Source: Celeribacter naphthalenivorans (GTDB taxonomy: Bacteria > Pseudomonadota > Alphaproteobacteria > Rhodobacterales > Rhodobacteraceae). From it: 64,000 bases of DNA. The number at the start of each line of letters is the position of its first letter. The first letter of the stretch is position 1. Of the stretch, positions 29,575-36,768 are shown one piece after another. The notes under the pieces were generated by a model. The model was not told the DNA's origin and ran no database searches. It saw only the letters and a program-made list of their open reading frames with translations. Position numbers and translations under genes: made by a program. The stretch covers positions 310,001-374,000 of the forward strand of contig NZ_JAIVLK010000002.1 in the NCBI RefSeq assembly GCF_020524585.1. Direction: 5' to 3'.

Positions 29575-31668
29575 ATGACCACTTTGCACCGGACCGCTGG
29601 GGTCCGTATGCGCCTGCACTGCAGTGTCGCCATTCTAGTTTCCTGTTTTCCGATCGCCACTTTGGCGCAGGATGTGTCGCAAAATGTCACCGTCCTCGAC
29701 ACCATCGTGGTCGAGGGCAACACAGGCGAGACCAGCGTCGAGACCCTGACTGGTGGCGAGATCGCCGTCGTTGAGGGCGAGGCCGTCGCCGACAGTTATA
29801 CAGGCGATGTTGCCACCGCACTGCGCTCCGTGCCCGGCGTGTTCACGCGCTCGCCGGGGGACAACCCCGCCGTCACGGTCAACATTCGCGGCATGCAGGG
29901 GTTTGGCCGCGTCAACACGATGATCGACGGTATCCCGCAGACCTTCCGCAATATGTCGGGCCATGGCGGGTCTTATGACGATCAGGTCTTTGTCGATCCC
30001 GGTCTGGTCGCCAGTGCCGATGTCGCAAAAGGCGCCGTGGCGGGGGCCGCGGGGATGGGCGCGCTGGCGGGGGCCGCGAACTTCCGCACCATCGGCATCG
30101 ACGATGTGCTCGATGGGGAGAAACGCGTTGGCGGGATGTTGAAATTCAGCGCCGGTACCAACGGCTACGGCCCTCATGTGACGGCGGCGGGCGCCATGCA
30201 GGGCAATTTCGCCACCGGCGGCGACTGGGGGACGATGCTGGCGATTTCCGGCTATGAGAATGGGCAATATGCGGATGGCGATGGCACCAAATCCAGCGAA
30301 TATACTCAGGACGAGCCACTCACGATCCTTGCCAAAGCCCGCTTCCGCCCGTCGGACGCGCTTGAGATCAATATCGCGGCGCAGGACTATAATAACAAAA
30401 TGTTCCCGGCGAGTTCGTCTGGTTATCTCTGGGACATGGAGCGTCAGAGCGTGTCTGCCGATGTCCATTACAACCCGGCCAGTGAGCTGATTAACATCTC
30501 CGCCAATGCCTATTGGCAGGATATGTCCTTTGATTTCCCCGGTCACGAAGGTCAAGCCTACAATGGCAGCACCGGGCGCGAGGGCACGGATATCTCCAAG
30601 GGCTTCTCCGTGTCGAACAGCAGCCGGTTTAGCCCGAACCTGCGCCTCGACTACGGGTTGGCCTGGTCGAACAACGATTACGATGTGAATGAGTTGGGCG
30701 GCAACAATGGCTCTGGCGAGTTGGACAAGCTGGGCGCGTTCTTGCAGGCCAGTTACCAGATGGGCGCCTGGGATTTCGGGGCAGGGCTGCGCTATGACAC
30801 ATGGGAGCTGTCCGGGGAAATTCCCGAGACGGTGAATAACGTGACCACCGTGGTGCCGCTGGACAATTCGGGCGAGGAGCTTTTGCCGAACCTGAGTGCG
30901 CGCTATCACTTTAGCGATGCGCTTTCGACCTATGCCTCTTATGCGCAAACCATGCGTGCACCGACCGCGACCGAGATGTTCTACGGCGTCAATGGCAATG
31001 CCCACACCGGCGGCGGCACCACGATCCGTGTGAACCCGGATCTCGATTCCGAAAAAGCGGAGACCTTTGAGATCGGGGTGAACTATGCGACCGAGCTCTA
31101 TTATGTTTCGGCCTCGGCGTTCCAATCCAATGTCGAGGATTTCATCGTCTTCGAGACCGACAGCGACAATGAAGTGCGGTTCATCAACATTCCGGGCGAG
31201 ACTAAGCTGCGCGGGGTCGAACTTGCGGGTGGCTTTGAGACGGAGCGGTTCTTTGGCTCTCTCTCTGTGACGCTTTCCGACACGGACCAGCCCGCAGCGC
31301 AGCAGGCCGGTGGCGGGCATGACCAATATGGCGAGCTGCCGAATGAGTATCTGACGCTCGATCTCGGTGCGAAATTCCAGGGCGACGACGGTCGTATCGG
31401 CGCGCGGATGCGCTATGTCGGCGACAGCGTCGTGGCGCGCTACACGAGCTTTAGCGACATGACGGCGACGATGATCGACAAACCGTCTTACACGCTCTTT
31501 GACCTCTACGGTTCCTATCAGGTCAGCGACAATGCCGAGCTTTTCGCCAGCGTGGAGAATGTCTTCGACAAATATTACGTCGAAGCGAATTCCGGTGACA
31601 CCAGTCTCAATGGCGGCATCGGTGGGCGCGGGCGCACCTTTACCCTCGGGGCGACGTTCCGGTTCTGA
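29575..31668 (+). CDS. TonB-dependent outer-membrane receptor, heme-receptor type
   Basis: This 697-residue receptor has a signal peptide (ending near TLAQ), a TonB-box-like segment (VTVLDTIVVEG) and a plug domain (TALRSVPGVFTRSPGDNPAV, NIRGMQGFGRVNTMIDGIPQ). A 22-strand-type barrel follows, ending in an aromatic residue (FTLGATFRF). The plug pattern with DPGLVASADVAKGA, then GMGALAGAANFRT, resembles the HmuR/HasR hemin-receptor branch, so heme or hemoprotein uptake is the best guess. GAGGGGG before 29575 supports the start; ATG 29608 is an alternative. No heme ABC transporter or TonB genes adjoin. Confidence 0.8.
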   Translation: MTTLHRTAGVRMRLHCSVAILVSCFPIATLAQDVSQNVTVLDTIVVEGNTGETSVETLTGGEIAVVEGEAVADSYTGDVATALRSVPGVFTRSPGDNPAVTVNIRGMQGFGRVNTMIDGIPQTFRNMSGHGGSYDDQVFVDPGLVASADVAKGAVAGAAGMGALAGAANFRTIGIDDVLDGEKRVGGMLKFSAGTNGYGPHVTAAGAMQGNFATGGDWGTMLAISGYENGQYADGDGTKSSEYTQDEPLTILAKARFRPSDALEINIAAQDYNNKMFPASSSGYLWDMERQSVSADVHYNPASELINISANAYWQDMSFDFPGHEGQAYNGSTGREGTDISKGFSVSNSSRFSPNLRLDYGLAWSNNDYDVNELGGNNGSGELDKLGAFLQASYQMGAWDFGAGLRYDTWELSGEIPETVNNVTTVVPLDNSGEELLPNLSARYHFSDALSTYASYAQTMRAPTATEMFYGVNGNAHTGGGTTIRVNPDLDSEKAETFEIGVNYATELYYVSASAFQSNVEDFIVFETDSDNEVRFINIPGETKLRGVELAGGFETERFFGSLSVTLSDTDQPAAQQAGGGHDQYGELPNEYLTLDLGAKFQGDDGRIGARMRYVGDSVVARYTSFSDMTATMIDKPSYTLFDLYGSYQVSDNAELFASVENVFDKYYVEANSGDTSLNGGIGGRGRTFTLGATFRF

Positions 31669-33699: not shown

Positions 33700-33728
33700 T
33701 TGGCAGTGTTGCCATGCTGTTTCATAAT
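33700..33728 (+). promoter_or_regulatory. Sigma70-type promoter of the GSCFA operon
   Basis: TTGGCA (33700-33705), a 17-base spacer and CATAAT (33723-33728). The -10 lies inside an inverted repeat CTGTTTC-N9-GAAACAG (33717-33739), which could be an operator. The expected transcript would start about 20 bases before the TTG start codon. Confidence 0.55.
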
Positions 33729-33753
33729 TTTAGAAACAGAAAAGGCCTGTCTT

Positions 33754-34824
33754 TTGAAAAATCCCTATTCCGACCTGCCGCCGAAAGCCTTTTGGAAAAC
33801 CGGCGTCGTTCAGACGGACAAGGTCCACTGGCCCGAGCTTTTCGTGCCGAAATTCACCATCTCCGCCAACAGCGCCGTCGCCACCGCCGGCAGTTGTTTC
33901 GCGCAGCGCATCCGACAGGCACTGGCCGATGAGGAGATGCCGATCCTCGACGTCGAACCCGCGCCTGCGGCGGTAGAGGGCGATCTGGCGCGGGAGTTCG
34001 GGTACGGGCTGCATTCCGCGCGCTACGGCAATATTTACACGCCGCGTCAGCTTTTGGAGCTGTTGCAGGACATGCAAAAGGACGCGGTGCACAAGGCGCT
34101 GATCTGGGAGCGGGACGGGCGCTATGTCGACATGCTGCGCCCGAATGTCGAACCCGATGGCTGTGCCTCGGTGAAAGAGGTGCTCGAGCTGCGAAAGCAG
34201 CATCTGGCACGTCTGCGCGAATTGTTTGAGACGGTCGATGTCTTTGTCTTCACGCTGGGCCTGACGGAAGCGTGGATTCACGCGCCGACCGGGCGCTGTC
34301 TGCCGGTCGCGCCGGGGGTGATCGCGGGGGAGTATGATCCCAAACTCTACCGGTTCCACAATTTCACCCATTCGGAATTGCTCAAGGATCTCAAGGCGAT
34401 CCGCGTTCTTCTTCGCGATATTCGCAAGGGGGTGAAGATCATCCTGACCACCTCTCCCGTGCCGATCACGGCGACGGCGTCGGGCGATCACGCGTTGAAC
34501 GCCAGCACCTATACGAAATCCACGCTGCGCTCTGTGGCGGGCGAAATGGCGATGAAATTCAAGGATGTCGACTATTTTCCCGGCTATGAAATTGTCACCA
34601 CCTGGGCGCGGGAAAACCCGGCCTATGAGGCGAACCAGCGCAGCATCCGGCCTGAGGTCGTCGCCCATGTGATGGCGGTGTTTCTCGACGCTTACGGGCT
34701 GCGCAAAACCGGCGCGGCGGATCAGGCGGAGCCCGCAAAGATTCATGACGATGCCGAATATCTCGAAGGCCATGACGACGATCTGGTCTGCGAGGAAATC
34801 CTGATCGAGGCCCTGCAAAAATGA
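33754..34824 (+). CDS. GSCFA-domain protein 1 (SGNH-hydrolase-like)
   Basis: This 356-residue GSCFA-family protein has the name-giving motif GSCFA at residues 46-50. Other blocks shared with its paralogue are SARYGNIYT, FTLGLTEAW, APGVIAGEYDP and TSPVPITATAS. The family is thought to be a divergent SGNH/GDSL hydrolase or acyltransferase group; the activity is not known. TTG 33754 is chosen because AAAAGG lies seven bases upstream and it puts the N-terminus (MKNPYSDLPPKAFW) in register with the second GSCFA protein. The acidic C-terminal tail (about 330-356) is specific to this copy. There is no signal peptide. Its stop overlaps the next start by four bases. Confidence 0.75.
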   Translation: MKNPYSDLPPKAFWKTGVVQTDKVHWPELFVPKFTISANSAVATAGSCFAQRIRQALADEEMPILDVEPAPAAVEGDLAREFGYGLHSARYGNIYTPRQLLELLQDMQKDAVHKALIWERDGRYVDMLRPNVEPDGCASVKEVLELRKQHLARLRELFETVDVFVFTLGLTEAWIHAPTGRCLPVAPGVIAGEYDPKLYRFHNFTHSELLKDLKAIRVLLRDIRKGVKIILTTSPVPITATASGDHALNASTYTKSTLRSVAGEMAMKFKDVDYFPGYEIVTTWARENPAYEANQRSIRPEVVAHVMAVFLDAYGLRKTGAADQAEPAKIHDDAEYLEGHDDDLVCEEILIEALQK

Positions 34825-35630
34825 CCCGCGCCTTGTTGATCGGAAACTCGCATGTCGGCCCTTACCTCAATGCGCTGAAACATGCGGAGGGGGAGGTCGC
34901 TTTGGACCTCGATTGCATCGCGGCCTTTGGCGACGGTCTTGAGCGCTACACCATTGAAGACGGCGTGTTCTGCGGCAACATCCTTGATCCGAAGGTGACC
35001 GGGCGCAAGGGCAAGGGGCCGTTTCCCGGCTCGGAGGTGCGCGCGGTGCTGAAGGATTACGATGTGGTGCTGCTGACCGGTCTCAGGTTCTCGATCTTTC
35101 AGGTGATCCGTGTGTTCCGTGATCTGGGTCTTGTGACGATGGACAGCTCCCGCGATTATGCGACGGCGGCGGAAAACGGCGTGACGCTGGTCTCCGAGGC
35201 TTTGTTGCACCGGCTGATCGCGGAACGTCTGTCGGGCAGTCTGATGATGCAGATCGCGCGGGACATCCGGGCCGCAACGGATGCGCCGATCCTTGTGCTG
35301 GCCCAACCGCGCCCGACGCGGCAGGTCTTGGTCGAAGGCACAAGGTTCGAGACCTTTTGCAACGCCGAAGAGCGCGGTGAGGGGGACTTTGTGTCGAAGA
35401 CCTATGAGCGCCTCGCGCAGGAGCTTTGCGCCGGGATCGCGGCGCATTATGTGCCGCAGCCGCCGGGAACCATCGACGGGGGGATGTTCACGGACACCTC
35501 CTATATGATGGGCACCCTGCGCCCGCCGTTTTGGAAAAAGAACGGGCGCCCTGTGGATTTTCGTCATGGCAATGCCCGCTATGGGGCACGGATGTTGAAA
35601 CATGTGGCGCGGGAGCTGGAAACGCTGTGA
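34821..35630 (+). CDS. SGNH-type hydrolase-like protein between two GSCFA genes
   Basis: This 269-residue protein opens MTRALLIGNSHVGPYLNALK; GNSH fits the nucleophile block of SGNH hydrolases. Near the C-terminus, DFRHGNARYG (D246, H249) fits the DxxH block that completes such a triad. There is no signal peptide. It overlaps the upstream gene by ATGA and the downstream gene by GTGA, so all three should be made together. The substrate is unknown; acyl or acetyl ester chemistry on a polysaccharide or lipid is a guess from the fold only. Confidence 0.65.
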   Translation: MTRALLIGNSHVGPYLNALKHAEGEVALDLDCIAAFGDGLERYTIEDGVFCGNILDPKVTGRKGKGPFPGSEVRAVLKDYDVVLLTGLRFSIFQVIRVFRDLGLVTMDSSRDYATAAENGVTLVSEALLHRLIAERLSGSLMMQIARDIRAATDAPILVLAQPRPTRQVLVEGTRFETFCNAEERGEGDFVSKTYERLAQELCAGIAAHYVPQPPGTIDGGMFTDTSYMMGTLRPPFWKKNGRPVDFRHGNARYGARMLKHVARELETL

Positions 35631-36592
35631 GCCATCCCTATGAAACGAGCCCGGCAAAAGCGTTCTGGCGCAGTGGTGTTGTGGAGACCGACCGGCGGCG
35701 CTGGCCTGAGATTTACACGCCGGCCTTTCCGATCCGGGCCGAGACGGCCGTCGCCACCGCCGGGAGCTGTTTTGCGCAGCACATTGGCCGGTTTTTGCGG
35801 GACGCGGGCGTCAATGTTCTGGATGTGGAGCCTCGTCCTGAGGGCATGAGCGATGAGGCGGCCAAAGCGCGTGGCTATGGCCTCTATTCGGCGCGCTACG
35901 GCAATATCTATACGGCACGCCAGCTGCGCGAGTTGTTGGAGGATGCCTTTGAAATCTATGTGGAAGACCGCCATTTTCTGACCCGCGACGGAGCATGGTT
36001 CGATGCGCTGCGCCCCGGTGTGGAGCCGGACGGTTTTGCCACTTTGGAGGCGGCGGTGGAGGCCCGGCGGGCGCATCTTTTGCAGGTGGTGGAATTGGCG
36101 CAGGAGATGGAGGTGTTCATCTTCACACTGGGTCTGACCGAAGGCTGGATCGACCGTGAAACGGGGCGCGTGCTGGCCATGGCGCCCGGCGTGATTGCGG
36201 GCGATTACGACCCGGAACGTTATGTGTTCCACAATTTTACCTATGACGAAATTTACGCCGATCTCGTTGAAATCCGGAAACTTTTGCGCGGCATCAATCC
36301 CAATGTGCAGCTCCTGCTGACCGTCTCGCCGGTGCCTTTGACCGGGACGGCCTCCGACCAGCATGTTTTGGCGGCGACGAGTTATTCGAAATCGGTTCTG
36401 CGCGCGGTGGCGGGGGATTTGGCGGAGGCATACGCGACGGTGGACTATTTTCCCTCCTATGAGATCGTCACCACTTGGGCAGCACCCGAGGCGGCTTTTG
36501 CGGCGAACCTGCGTTCGGTCCGGCCCGAGATGGTCGAGGGGGTGATGGAGGTGTTTTTGACCGCGCATGGATTGGAGACCACTGGCGGTTGA
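35627..36592 (+). CDS. GSCFA-domain protein 2 (paralogue of protein 1)
   Basis: This 321-residue paralogue of the first GSCFA protein is about half identical by eye along its whole length. GSCFA is again at residues 46-50, followed by SARYGNIYT, FTLGLTEGW, TVSPVPLTGTAS and YFPSYEIVTTWA. The GTG start overlaps the stop of the SGNH gene (GTGA), and the N-terminus MSHPYETSPAKAFW matches MKNPYSDLPPKAFW of copy 1. It lacks the acidic tail of copy 1. Its gene is the last in the triad; the next gene begins 176 bases later. Confidence 0.75.
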   Translation: MSHPYETSPAKAFWRSGVVETDRRRWPEIYTPAFPIRAETAVATAGSCFAQHIGRFLRDAGVNVLDVEPRPEGMSDEAAKARGYGLYSARYGNIYTARQLRELLEDAFEIYVEDRHFLTRDGAWFDALRPGVEPDGFATLEAAVEARRAHLLQVVELAQEMEVFIFTLGLTEGWIDRETGRVLAMAPGVIAGDYDPERYVFHNFTYDEIYADLVEIRKLLRGINPNVQLLLTVSPVPLTGTASDQHVLAATSYSKSVLRAVAGDLAEAYATVDYFPSYEIVTTWAAPEAAFAANLRSVRPEMVEGVMEVFLTAHGLETTGG

Positions 36593-36768
36593 CAGGCGGT
36601 TGAGGCGCTGCCTGTTTGGTGATCGAAGATTTGGCACATGCCATGAAATTGATCGTCGTGTTCGGGTGTCCTTGGGAAACCTCTTGCACATTTGATCAAA
36701 ATCTTTTCAGGATCGAAGAGACAGGGGATAGGGCCGGGACCGGCCCGGACATTGGGAAGGGAGCCAGC

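What the first reader, a model, noticed from the sequence alone, without database searches (positions are those of the whole stretch)
33754..36592. GSCFA - SGNH - GSCFA three-gene operon, a candidate undescribed system
Seen: two diverged GSCFA paralogues, about half identical by eye, with GSCFA at residues 46-50 in both. They flank a gene with GNSH and DFRHGN motifs. All three are joined by 4-base stop/start overlaps (ATGA at 34821, GTGA at 35627). Two of the three start codons are non-ATG (TTG and GTG). A sigma70-type promoter (33700-33728), overlapping an inverted repeat CTGTTTC-N9-GAAACAG, follows the rpsI terminator. Known: GSCFA and SGNH proteins are hydrolase/acyltransferase-like with poorly known roles. 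Inference: three related but different serine-hydrolase-like proteins made in fixed ratio suggest one complex or pathway, perhaps acyl-ester editing of a surface glycan or lipid.
Basis: partly seen in the sequence, partly recalled or inferred. Interest (0 to 1): 0.75.

Follow-up and report, generated by a model that had tools for sequence, protein, structure and literature searches.

The report
GSCFA–SGNH acyltransferase module, tandem duplicate
Three overlapping genes in a marine Celeribacter-type bacterium look like a stand-alone two-protein machine for attaching acyl groups, one half of which was duplicated, and relatives show a short conserved protein tail that probably holds the two halves together.

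Summary
In detail: two GSCFA paralogues (54.5% identical) flank a gene whose predicted fold is SGNH, joined by ATGA and GTGA overlaps. The conserved unit is a GSCFA–SGNH pair, not the triplet: in the same genus the slot beside rpsI/potB holds one pair, two tandem pairs or a lone GSCFA. The window is pair a plus the GSCFA of pair b; remains of b's SGNH lie at 36610-36660. GSCFA2 is still under purifying selection (dN/dS 0.15). GSCFAs of this type mostly end in an acidic tail with a conserved Cys (VCEExLLEAF); 132 of 138 tail-bearing ones have an adjacent SGNH gene, 21 of them upstream. Exceptions include a WcbI–GSCFA fusion. The closest known system is Pseudomonas PipF/PipG, needed for O-acetylation of a detoxin-like peptide (PMC12828459), with the same motif spacing. 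Most likely: a PipFG-like cytoplasmic O-acyltransferase, substrate unknown. GSCFA–SGNH–GSCFA recurs in Rhodobacter-type genomes, where the first GSCFA has decayed but keeps the tail. New variant of a known kind.

The parts
33700..33728 (+). sigma70-type promoter TTGGCA-N17-CATAAT
   Evidence: similar boxes by eye before GSCFA in G019, G016, G006, G002, G003, G014
33717..33739 (.). inverted repeat CTGTTTC-N9-GAAACAG over the -10 box; possible operator, role unknown
   Evidence: intact in G016, changed in G019, not seen in G006, G003 or G014
33754..34824 (+). GSCFA1 (pair a), Cys48 in the GSCFA motif, tail-bearing
34726..34782 (+). acidic linker of GSCFA1 (residues 325-343), predicted disordered
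   Evidence: pLDDT under 50 at 328-342
34783..34821 (+). C-terminal tail LVCEEILIEALQK of GSCFA1 (residues 344-356, Cys346): proposed docking peptide
34821..35630 (+). SGNH-fold partner (PipF-like), Ser10, Asp246, His249
35627..36592 (+). GSCFA2 (from pair b), Cys48 kept, tail and own SGNH lost
36610..36660 (+). remnant of the 3' end of the lost SGNH of pair b (deletion scar; 17 residues, 71% identical to residues 257-273 of the 274-aa G006 SGNH)
   Evidence: blastn to G006 86.7% over 218 bases, running from the SGNH 3' end on into the flank

Best explanation
The operon carries a stand-alone GSCFA-SGNH acyltransferase module plus a second GSCFA left over from a tandem duplicate. Shown: the middle protein has the SGNH fold with Ser10, Asp246 and His249 conserved; GSCFA1 has an SGNH-like fold; tail-bearing GSCFAs are nearly always next to such an SGNH gene, in either gene order; the window triplet is pair a plus a GSCFA of pair b whose SGNH was deleted. 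Inferred: the SGNH protein takes an acyl group (acetyl or similar, probably from acyl-CoA) on Ser10 and passes it to a hydroxyl of a cytoplasmic substrate; GSCFA, with Cys48 at the nucleophile position, completes the active complex or presents the acceptor, as PipG seems to do for PipF; the disordered linker and VCEE tail of GSCFA1 dock it to SGNH; GSCFA2, which has no tail, either joins this complex as a second GSCFA subunit or works apart. Acyl group and acceptor are unknown.
Against: No activity was measured. PipFG also needs PipD; a PipD candidate (chosen by its place in L146) found no clear relative in 20 genus genomes (one hit, E 0.05, with stops). In the paper pipDFG gave no acetylation in E. 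coli and the PipF Asp208 mutant is not named as important; the authors say pipDFG occur only in detoxin-like clusters. Window and PipF-like partners are profile-level relatives of different length. In G006 and G015 the SGNH partner has lost its Ser motif (GDAH, GDDG) while GSCFA is kept, so SGNH catalysis is dispensable in part of this clade. L114, L188 and L185 have a tail-like end but no partner seen. Loss of tail and SGNH in the GSCFA2 lineage can be one contiguous deletion, so it is no proof of docking; a tree-controlled test gave 3-4 concordant and 0 discordant pairs of 5, p 0.125-0.25. hhalign shows no sequence kinship between the two proteins.
Confidence: 0.6

Rival explanations
1. The pair is a cytoplasmic deacylase or esterase (editing or repair) and not a transferase; SGNH-fold proteins do both.
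For: Many of the listed structural matches are esterases.
Against: The relatives with genetic evidence, PipF/PipG, are needed for adding an acetyl group; WcbI, a CoA-binding proposed acetyltransferase, lies beside or is fused to GSCFA in some loci.
Confidence: 0.2
2. GSCFA2 is not part of the complex: it is a free-standing GSCFA with its own role, kept after its SGNH was deleted, and the three-gene operon is a historical accident.
For: G019 keeps only GSCFA2 at this place, without pair a; dN/dS 0.15 between G000 and G019; deletion scar.
Against: A triplet with the same tail / no-tail split exists in a second group (L104, L117, partly L189), where the tail-bearing GSCFA is decayed and the tail-less one intact, which suggests that two GSCFAs can share one SGNH.
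Confidence: 0.45
3. The GSCFA tail is not a docking peptide but a degradation tag, a regulatory element or a metal/redox site.
For: Low confidence and mostly unstructured in the single-chain model; a near-invariant Cys is unusual for a plain docking helix (inference).
Against: It goes with an adjacent SGNH gene in both gene orders and survives in GSCFA-like proteins that lost their own GSCFA motif beside an SGNH gene.
Confidence: 0.3

Closest known systems
PipF/PipG (with PipD) O-acetylation complex of pseudotetraivprolide biosynthesis, Pseudomonas entomophila (PMC12828459); detoxin, rimosamide and miramide clusters list a GSCFA protein (detH, rmoJ, mirD) next to a putative protein (detI, rmoK, mirC) (PMC9503745, table passage)
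   Same: Adjacent GSCFA and SGNH-type partner; Ser plus D-x-x-H in the partner; Cys in the GSC of GSCFA; tail present in the Pseudomonas and Streptomyces members read here
   Different: No PipD candidate found; no NRPS/PKS or dioxygenase gene beside it; partner longer (269 against 217-235 aa); stand-alone chromosomal slot rpsI-potB; tandem GSCFA
GSCFA family PF08885
   Same: Both flanking proteins match nearly the whole model (2-237 of 237)
   Different: A 2022 review lists GSCFA with no known activity and no structure (PMC9487903, passages); here a partner and a tail are defined
WcbI family PF18588 (PMC4104973, abstract and passages)
   Same: Found beside or fused to tail-bearing GSCFA in some relatives (L169/L216, L178/L217, plasmid locus L208)
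   Different: Own fold and GNCQ-type motif; 0 matches in the window genome
SGNH O-acetyltransferases such as PatB and SGNH domains fused to AT3
   Same: SGNH fold, Ser and D-x-x-H
   Different: Those act in the periplasm or with a membrane partner (recalled); the window proteins show no signal peptide by eye; 15 of 68 partners touch the AT3-SGNH model only weakly, best E 0.0012

Membership tests
GSCFA (PF08885) | Match over the curated cut-off | tested here: met
   156.9 and 175.5 bits against 25
SGNH hydrolase superfamily (middle gene) | SGNH fold | tested here: met
SGNH hydrolase superfamily (middle gene) | Block I Ser and block V D-x-x-H | tested here: met
   Ser10 and His249 invariant, Asp246 at least 90% in 68 sequences. 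Rows were picked by a block-I pattern, so Ser10 is partly so by choice; G006 and G015 partners, which lost it, were left out
SGNH hydrolase superfamily (middle gene) | Block III Asn of the oxyanion hole | tested here: inconclusive
   Gly87 is followed by Leu-Arg in the window protein; no Asn there, but block III was placed by eye
SGNH hydrolase superfamily (middle gene) | Match to a Pfam SGNH family | tested here: not met
   no family for the window protein at E up to 5
PipDFG acetylation complex | Adjacent GSCFA and PipF homologue | tested here: met
PipDFG acetylation complex | PipF Ser/Asp-x-x-His and PipG Cys | tested here: met
   Ser10, Asp246, His249 and Cys48 against Ser18, Asp208, His211 and Cys47
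PipDFG acetylation complex | PipD present | tested here: inconclusive
   no hit in G000 and one weak hit with stops in 20 genus genomes, but the query was taken for PipD by its place only
PipDFG acetylation complex | Lies in a detoxin-like NRPS/PKS cluster | tested here: not met
   neighbours are rplM, rpsI and potBCA-like genes (named by eye)
PipDFG acetylation complex | O-acetylates a substrate | not testable with these tools
   needs an assay

The most novel reading that the evidence does not exclude
GSCFA is the constant chassis of a modular acyltransferase: its swinging C-terminal tail, with a near-invariant Cys, docks to and perhaps carries the acyl group as a thioester between interchangeable acyl-loading partners (SGNH/PipF, WcbI, perhaps an alpha/beta hydrolase) and the GSCFA Cys48 site. 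That would explain the distance between the important PipF and PipG residues that puzzled the PipDFG authors, and would name GSCFA-type proteins as the missing partner class of WcbI. In the window and in Rhodobacter-type triplets one GSCFA gives the tail and the other the active site.
Probability: 0.15. Interest if true: 0.85.

Novelty: new variant of a known kind. Interest (0 to 1): 0.57.

Why it matters
GSCFA was listed in a 2022 review as an SGNH family with no known function. This gives it a partner, a candidate docking motif, a candidate nucleophile (Cys48) and a link to the one genetically studied case (PipF/PipG), and shows that the pair is common outside natural-product clusters. The WcbI-GSCFA fusion offers a lead for the partner that the WcbI structure paper proposed but had not identified. 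A tail-peptide binding assay and a Cys346 mutant would test the idea directly.

Tried and rejected
Phage defence: no PADLOC or PHROGs family for the three proteins at E up to 0.1. Sequence kinship of the two proteins by profile: none. Solved structures by sequence: no convincing relative (GSCFA best E 0.012, to a methylglyoxal reductase; SGNH best E 0.52, to a GDSL esterase over 27 positions). Plasmid carriage: P0002 in 1 and P0003 in 43 of 72,556 plasmid records, so the close forms are not mainly on plasmids. A genome-contig scan with P0002 alone confirmed nothing. WcbI as the general partner: only 2 of 9 WcbI genes in the 295-genome sample lie with GSCFA. Co-loss of tail and partner as proof of docking: not accepted as decisive because of the deletion scar and the weak tree-controlled test. 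A constant neighbour pathway was sought in 76 of the 80 named loci (L072-L147): apart from GSCFA and SGNH no cluster is in more than 10 loci; genes that look like the two CoA-transferase genes of L063 are in 10 and 9 (named by eye).

Full report
Observation. Two proteins match GSCFA PF08885 from model position 2 to its end; the middle one matches no Pfam family. The genome belongs to a genus set that includes Celeribacter and Pacificibacter records (inferred from equal contig lengths, and the record titles).

The unit is a pair. Among 20 genus genomes (own included) GSCFA is found in 17. The slot with rplM-rpsI on one side and potBCA on the other was fetched for 13 of the 20 (own window). It holds GSCFA-SGNH in G018, G003, G007, G014, G006 and G015 (in G015 only the potBCA side was recognised); GSCFA-SGNH-GSCFA-SGNH in G002; a lone GSCFA in G019, G013, G010 and G009 (in the last two potBCA was not called beside it); a frameshifted GSCFA in G016; and the triplet only in the window genome. 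Gene names are by similarity to window ORFs named by eye. The other seven genomes were not read at this slot. A second pair lies elsewhere: in the own genome (L063) the order is topA, CoA transferase, GSCFA, SGNH, CoA transferase, with topA and both CoA-transferase genes checked by Pfam in L063 only. The own genome has 4 GSCFA matches and 2 SGNH-partner matches.

History of the triplet. In trees window GSCFA1 groups with G002a and G018 (100/100) and its SGNH likewise (100/100). Window GSCFA2 groups with G019 (100/100) inside the b group (98/94); the b group of SGNH is weaker (85/81). So the window is pair a plus the GSCFA of pair b. The DNA after GSCFA2 still holds the last codons of a b-type SGNH (36610-36660; tblastn 71% over 17 residues to the G006 protein, E 4.5e-6 in a tiny target; blastn 86.7% over 218 bases). 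The G019 spacer aligns to the same stretch of G006 by blastn (89.5%), though the protein-level remnant is not found there. GSCFA2 is under purifying selection (dN/dS 0.152, G000 against G019), looser than potA and potB (0.036) but like another neighbour (0.140); SGNH of pair a gives 0.251 against G002. In G006 and G015 the b-type SGNH has lost its Ser motif (GDAH, GDDG) and His and gives 0.395, so decay of this partner may have begun before the deletion.

The tail. GSCFA1 ends in an acidic linker and LVCEEILIEALQK. In 65 aligned GSCFAs Cys346 is at least 90% conserved (rows were not chosen by the tail). Over loci L043-L207, duplicates removed, 138 main-type GSCFAs have a C-[EDQ]-[EDQ] end; 111 have an SGNH gene directly downstream, 21 directly upstream, 6 neither. 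Of the 6, L132 is a false negative; L169 has a WcbI gene; L178 is a WcbI-GSCFA fusion in one 649-aa frame (PF18588 2e-18, PF08885 6e-48); L155 has a weakly alpha/beta-hydrolase-like gene upstream (NCBIfam E 4e-4, far under its cut-off); L188 and L185 show no partner among called ORFs. L114, dropped by a filter, has a tail-like end and no partner seen. Twelve main-type GSCFAs lack the tail: 6 have no SGNH neighbour (one of them the frameshifted L061), 3 have one but the GSCFA frame or the partner is decayed (L049, L157, L192), and 3 (L104, L117, L189) follow an SGNH gene as window GSCFA2 does. The fuller tail pattern is in 69 of 75 GSCFAs and 0 of 675 other called proteins of 76 named loci. The reversed gene order shows that the tail is not a by-product of gene overlap. 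A tree-controlled test has too few losses to be significant.

A second triplet. In Rhodobacter viridis (L104) and Stagnihabitans tardus (L117) the order is GSCFA-like, SGNH, GSCFA. The first protein has lost the GSCFA, SPVPLTATA and YFPSYE motifs and is not recognised by Pfam in L104, with 81 and 66 bits to the GSCFA profile, but keeps the tail; the last keeps the motifs and lacks the tail. L189 shows the same tail before its SGNH gene, but its first gene was only partly fetched. A decayed enzyme kept with its tail beside SGNH suggests that the tail has a job and that two GSCFA chains may share one SGNH.

Known system. Of PMC12828459 I saw the abstract, passages and section 11, not the supplements. 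[quoted passage not shown] that the pipG deletion is complemented by pipFG or pipFGH and not by pipG alone; that PipF Ser18 and His211 and PipG Cys47 matter; and that the distance between them is unexplained. pipDFG gave no acetylation in E. coli. The words tail, linker, interface and C-terminus do not occur in its main text. Pseudomonas loci L125 and L146 (clusters assigned by eye) and a Streptomyces plasmid locus annotated with NRPS, TauD/TfdA dioxygenase and SpcZ genes (L209) have the same gene pair and the tail. A literature search for GSCFA gave 7 papers (passages of five seen), and no paper held two of 'GSCFA domain', 'SGNH' and 'acyltransferase complex'; subscription journals are mostly not in that library. 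PMC4104973 (abstract and passages) says that WcbI binds CoA, showed no activity alone and may need a partner.

Mechanism. Shown: pairing, folds, conserved residues, tail, deletion. Inferred: acyl loading on Ser10, GSCFA Cys48 in catalysis or acceptor binding, tail docking, acyl-CoA donor. Both proteins look cytoplasmic (no signal peptide by eye), so the acceptor is probably a soluble metabolite or precursor. The CoA-transferase neighbours of the second pair fit an acyl-CoA donor but do not prove it.

Verdict. The finding is real and leads to a clear, testable module. It is a new variant of the PipF/PipG kind, not a categorically new system.

Noticed in passing
L063:7638-10880 (own genome, second GSCFA locus): A second GSCFA-SGNH pair sits between two CoA-transferase genes, after topA. 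Genes of similar length flank GSCFA in seven further genus loci (L050, L053, L055, L057, L059, L065, and L062 without SGNH); Pfam-checked only in L063.
   Followed up: partly
L046:8674-9350, minus strand (G007): Between rpsI and the GSCFA gene, on the other strand, a frame encodes a canonical GDSL-type protein (GDSFTQG, GTND, DGTHP).
   Followed up: no
L200, L201, L074, L082, L124: One GSCFA with two or three SGNH partner genes in the same locus: partner number varies.
   Followed up: no
L178:3495-5441 (G142): WcbI domain fused to a tail-bearing GSCFA in one frame.
   Followed up: partly
window 33717-33739: Inverted repeat over the -10 box; G002 shows a different palindrome at the same place (TCTCAT/ATGAGA, by eye), which may be a compensated operator.
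   Followed up: partly
window 29575-31668: A TonB-receptor-like gene near the slot is present in some genus members (L045, L047, L051, L061) and not called in others (L043, L044, L046, L048, L060): this region gains and loses genes.
   Followed up: no
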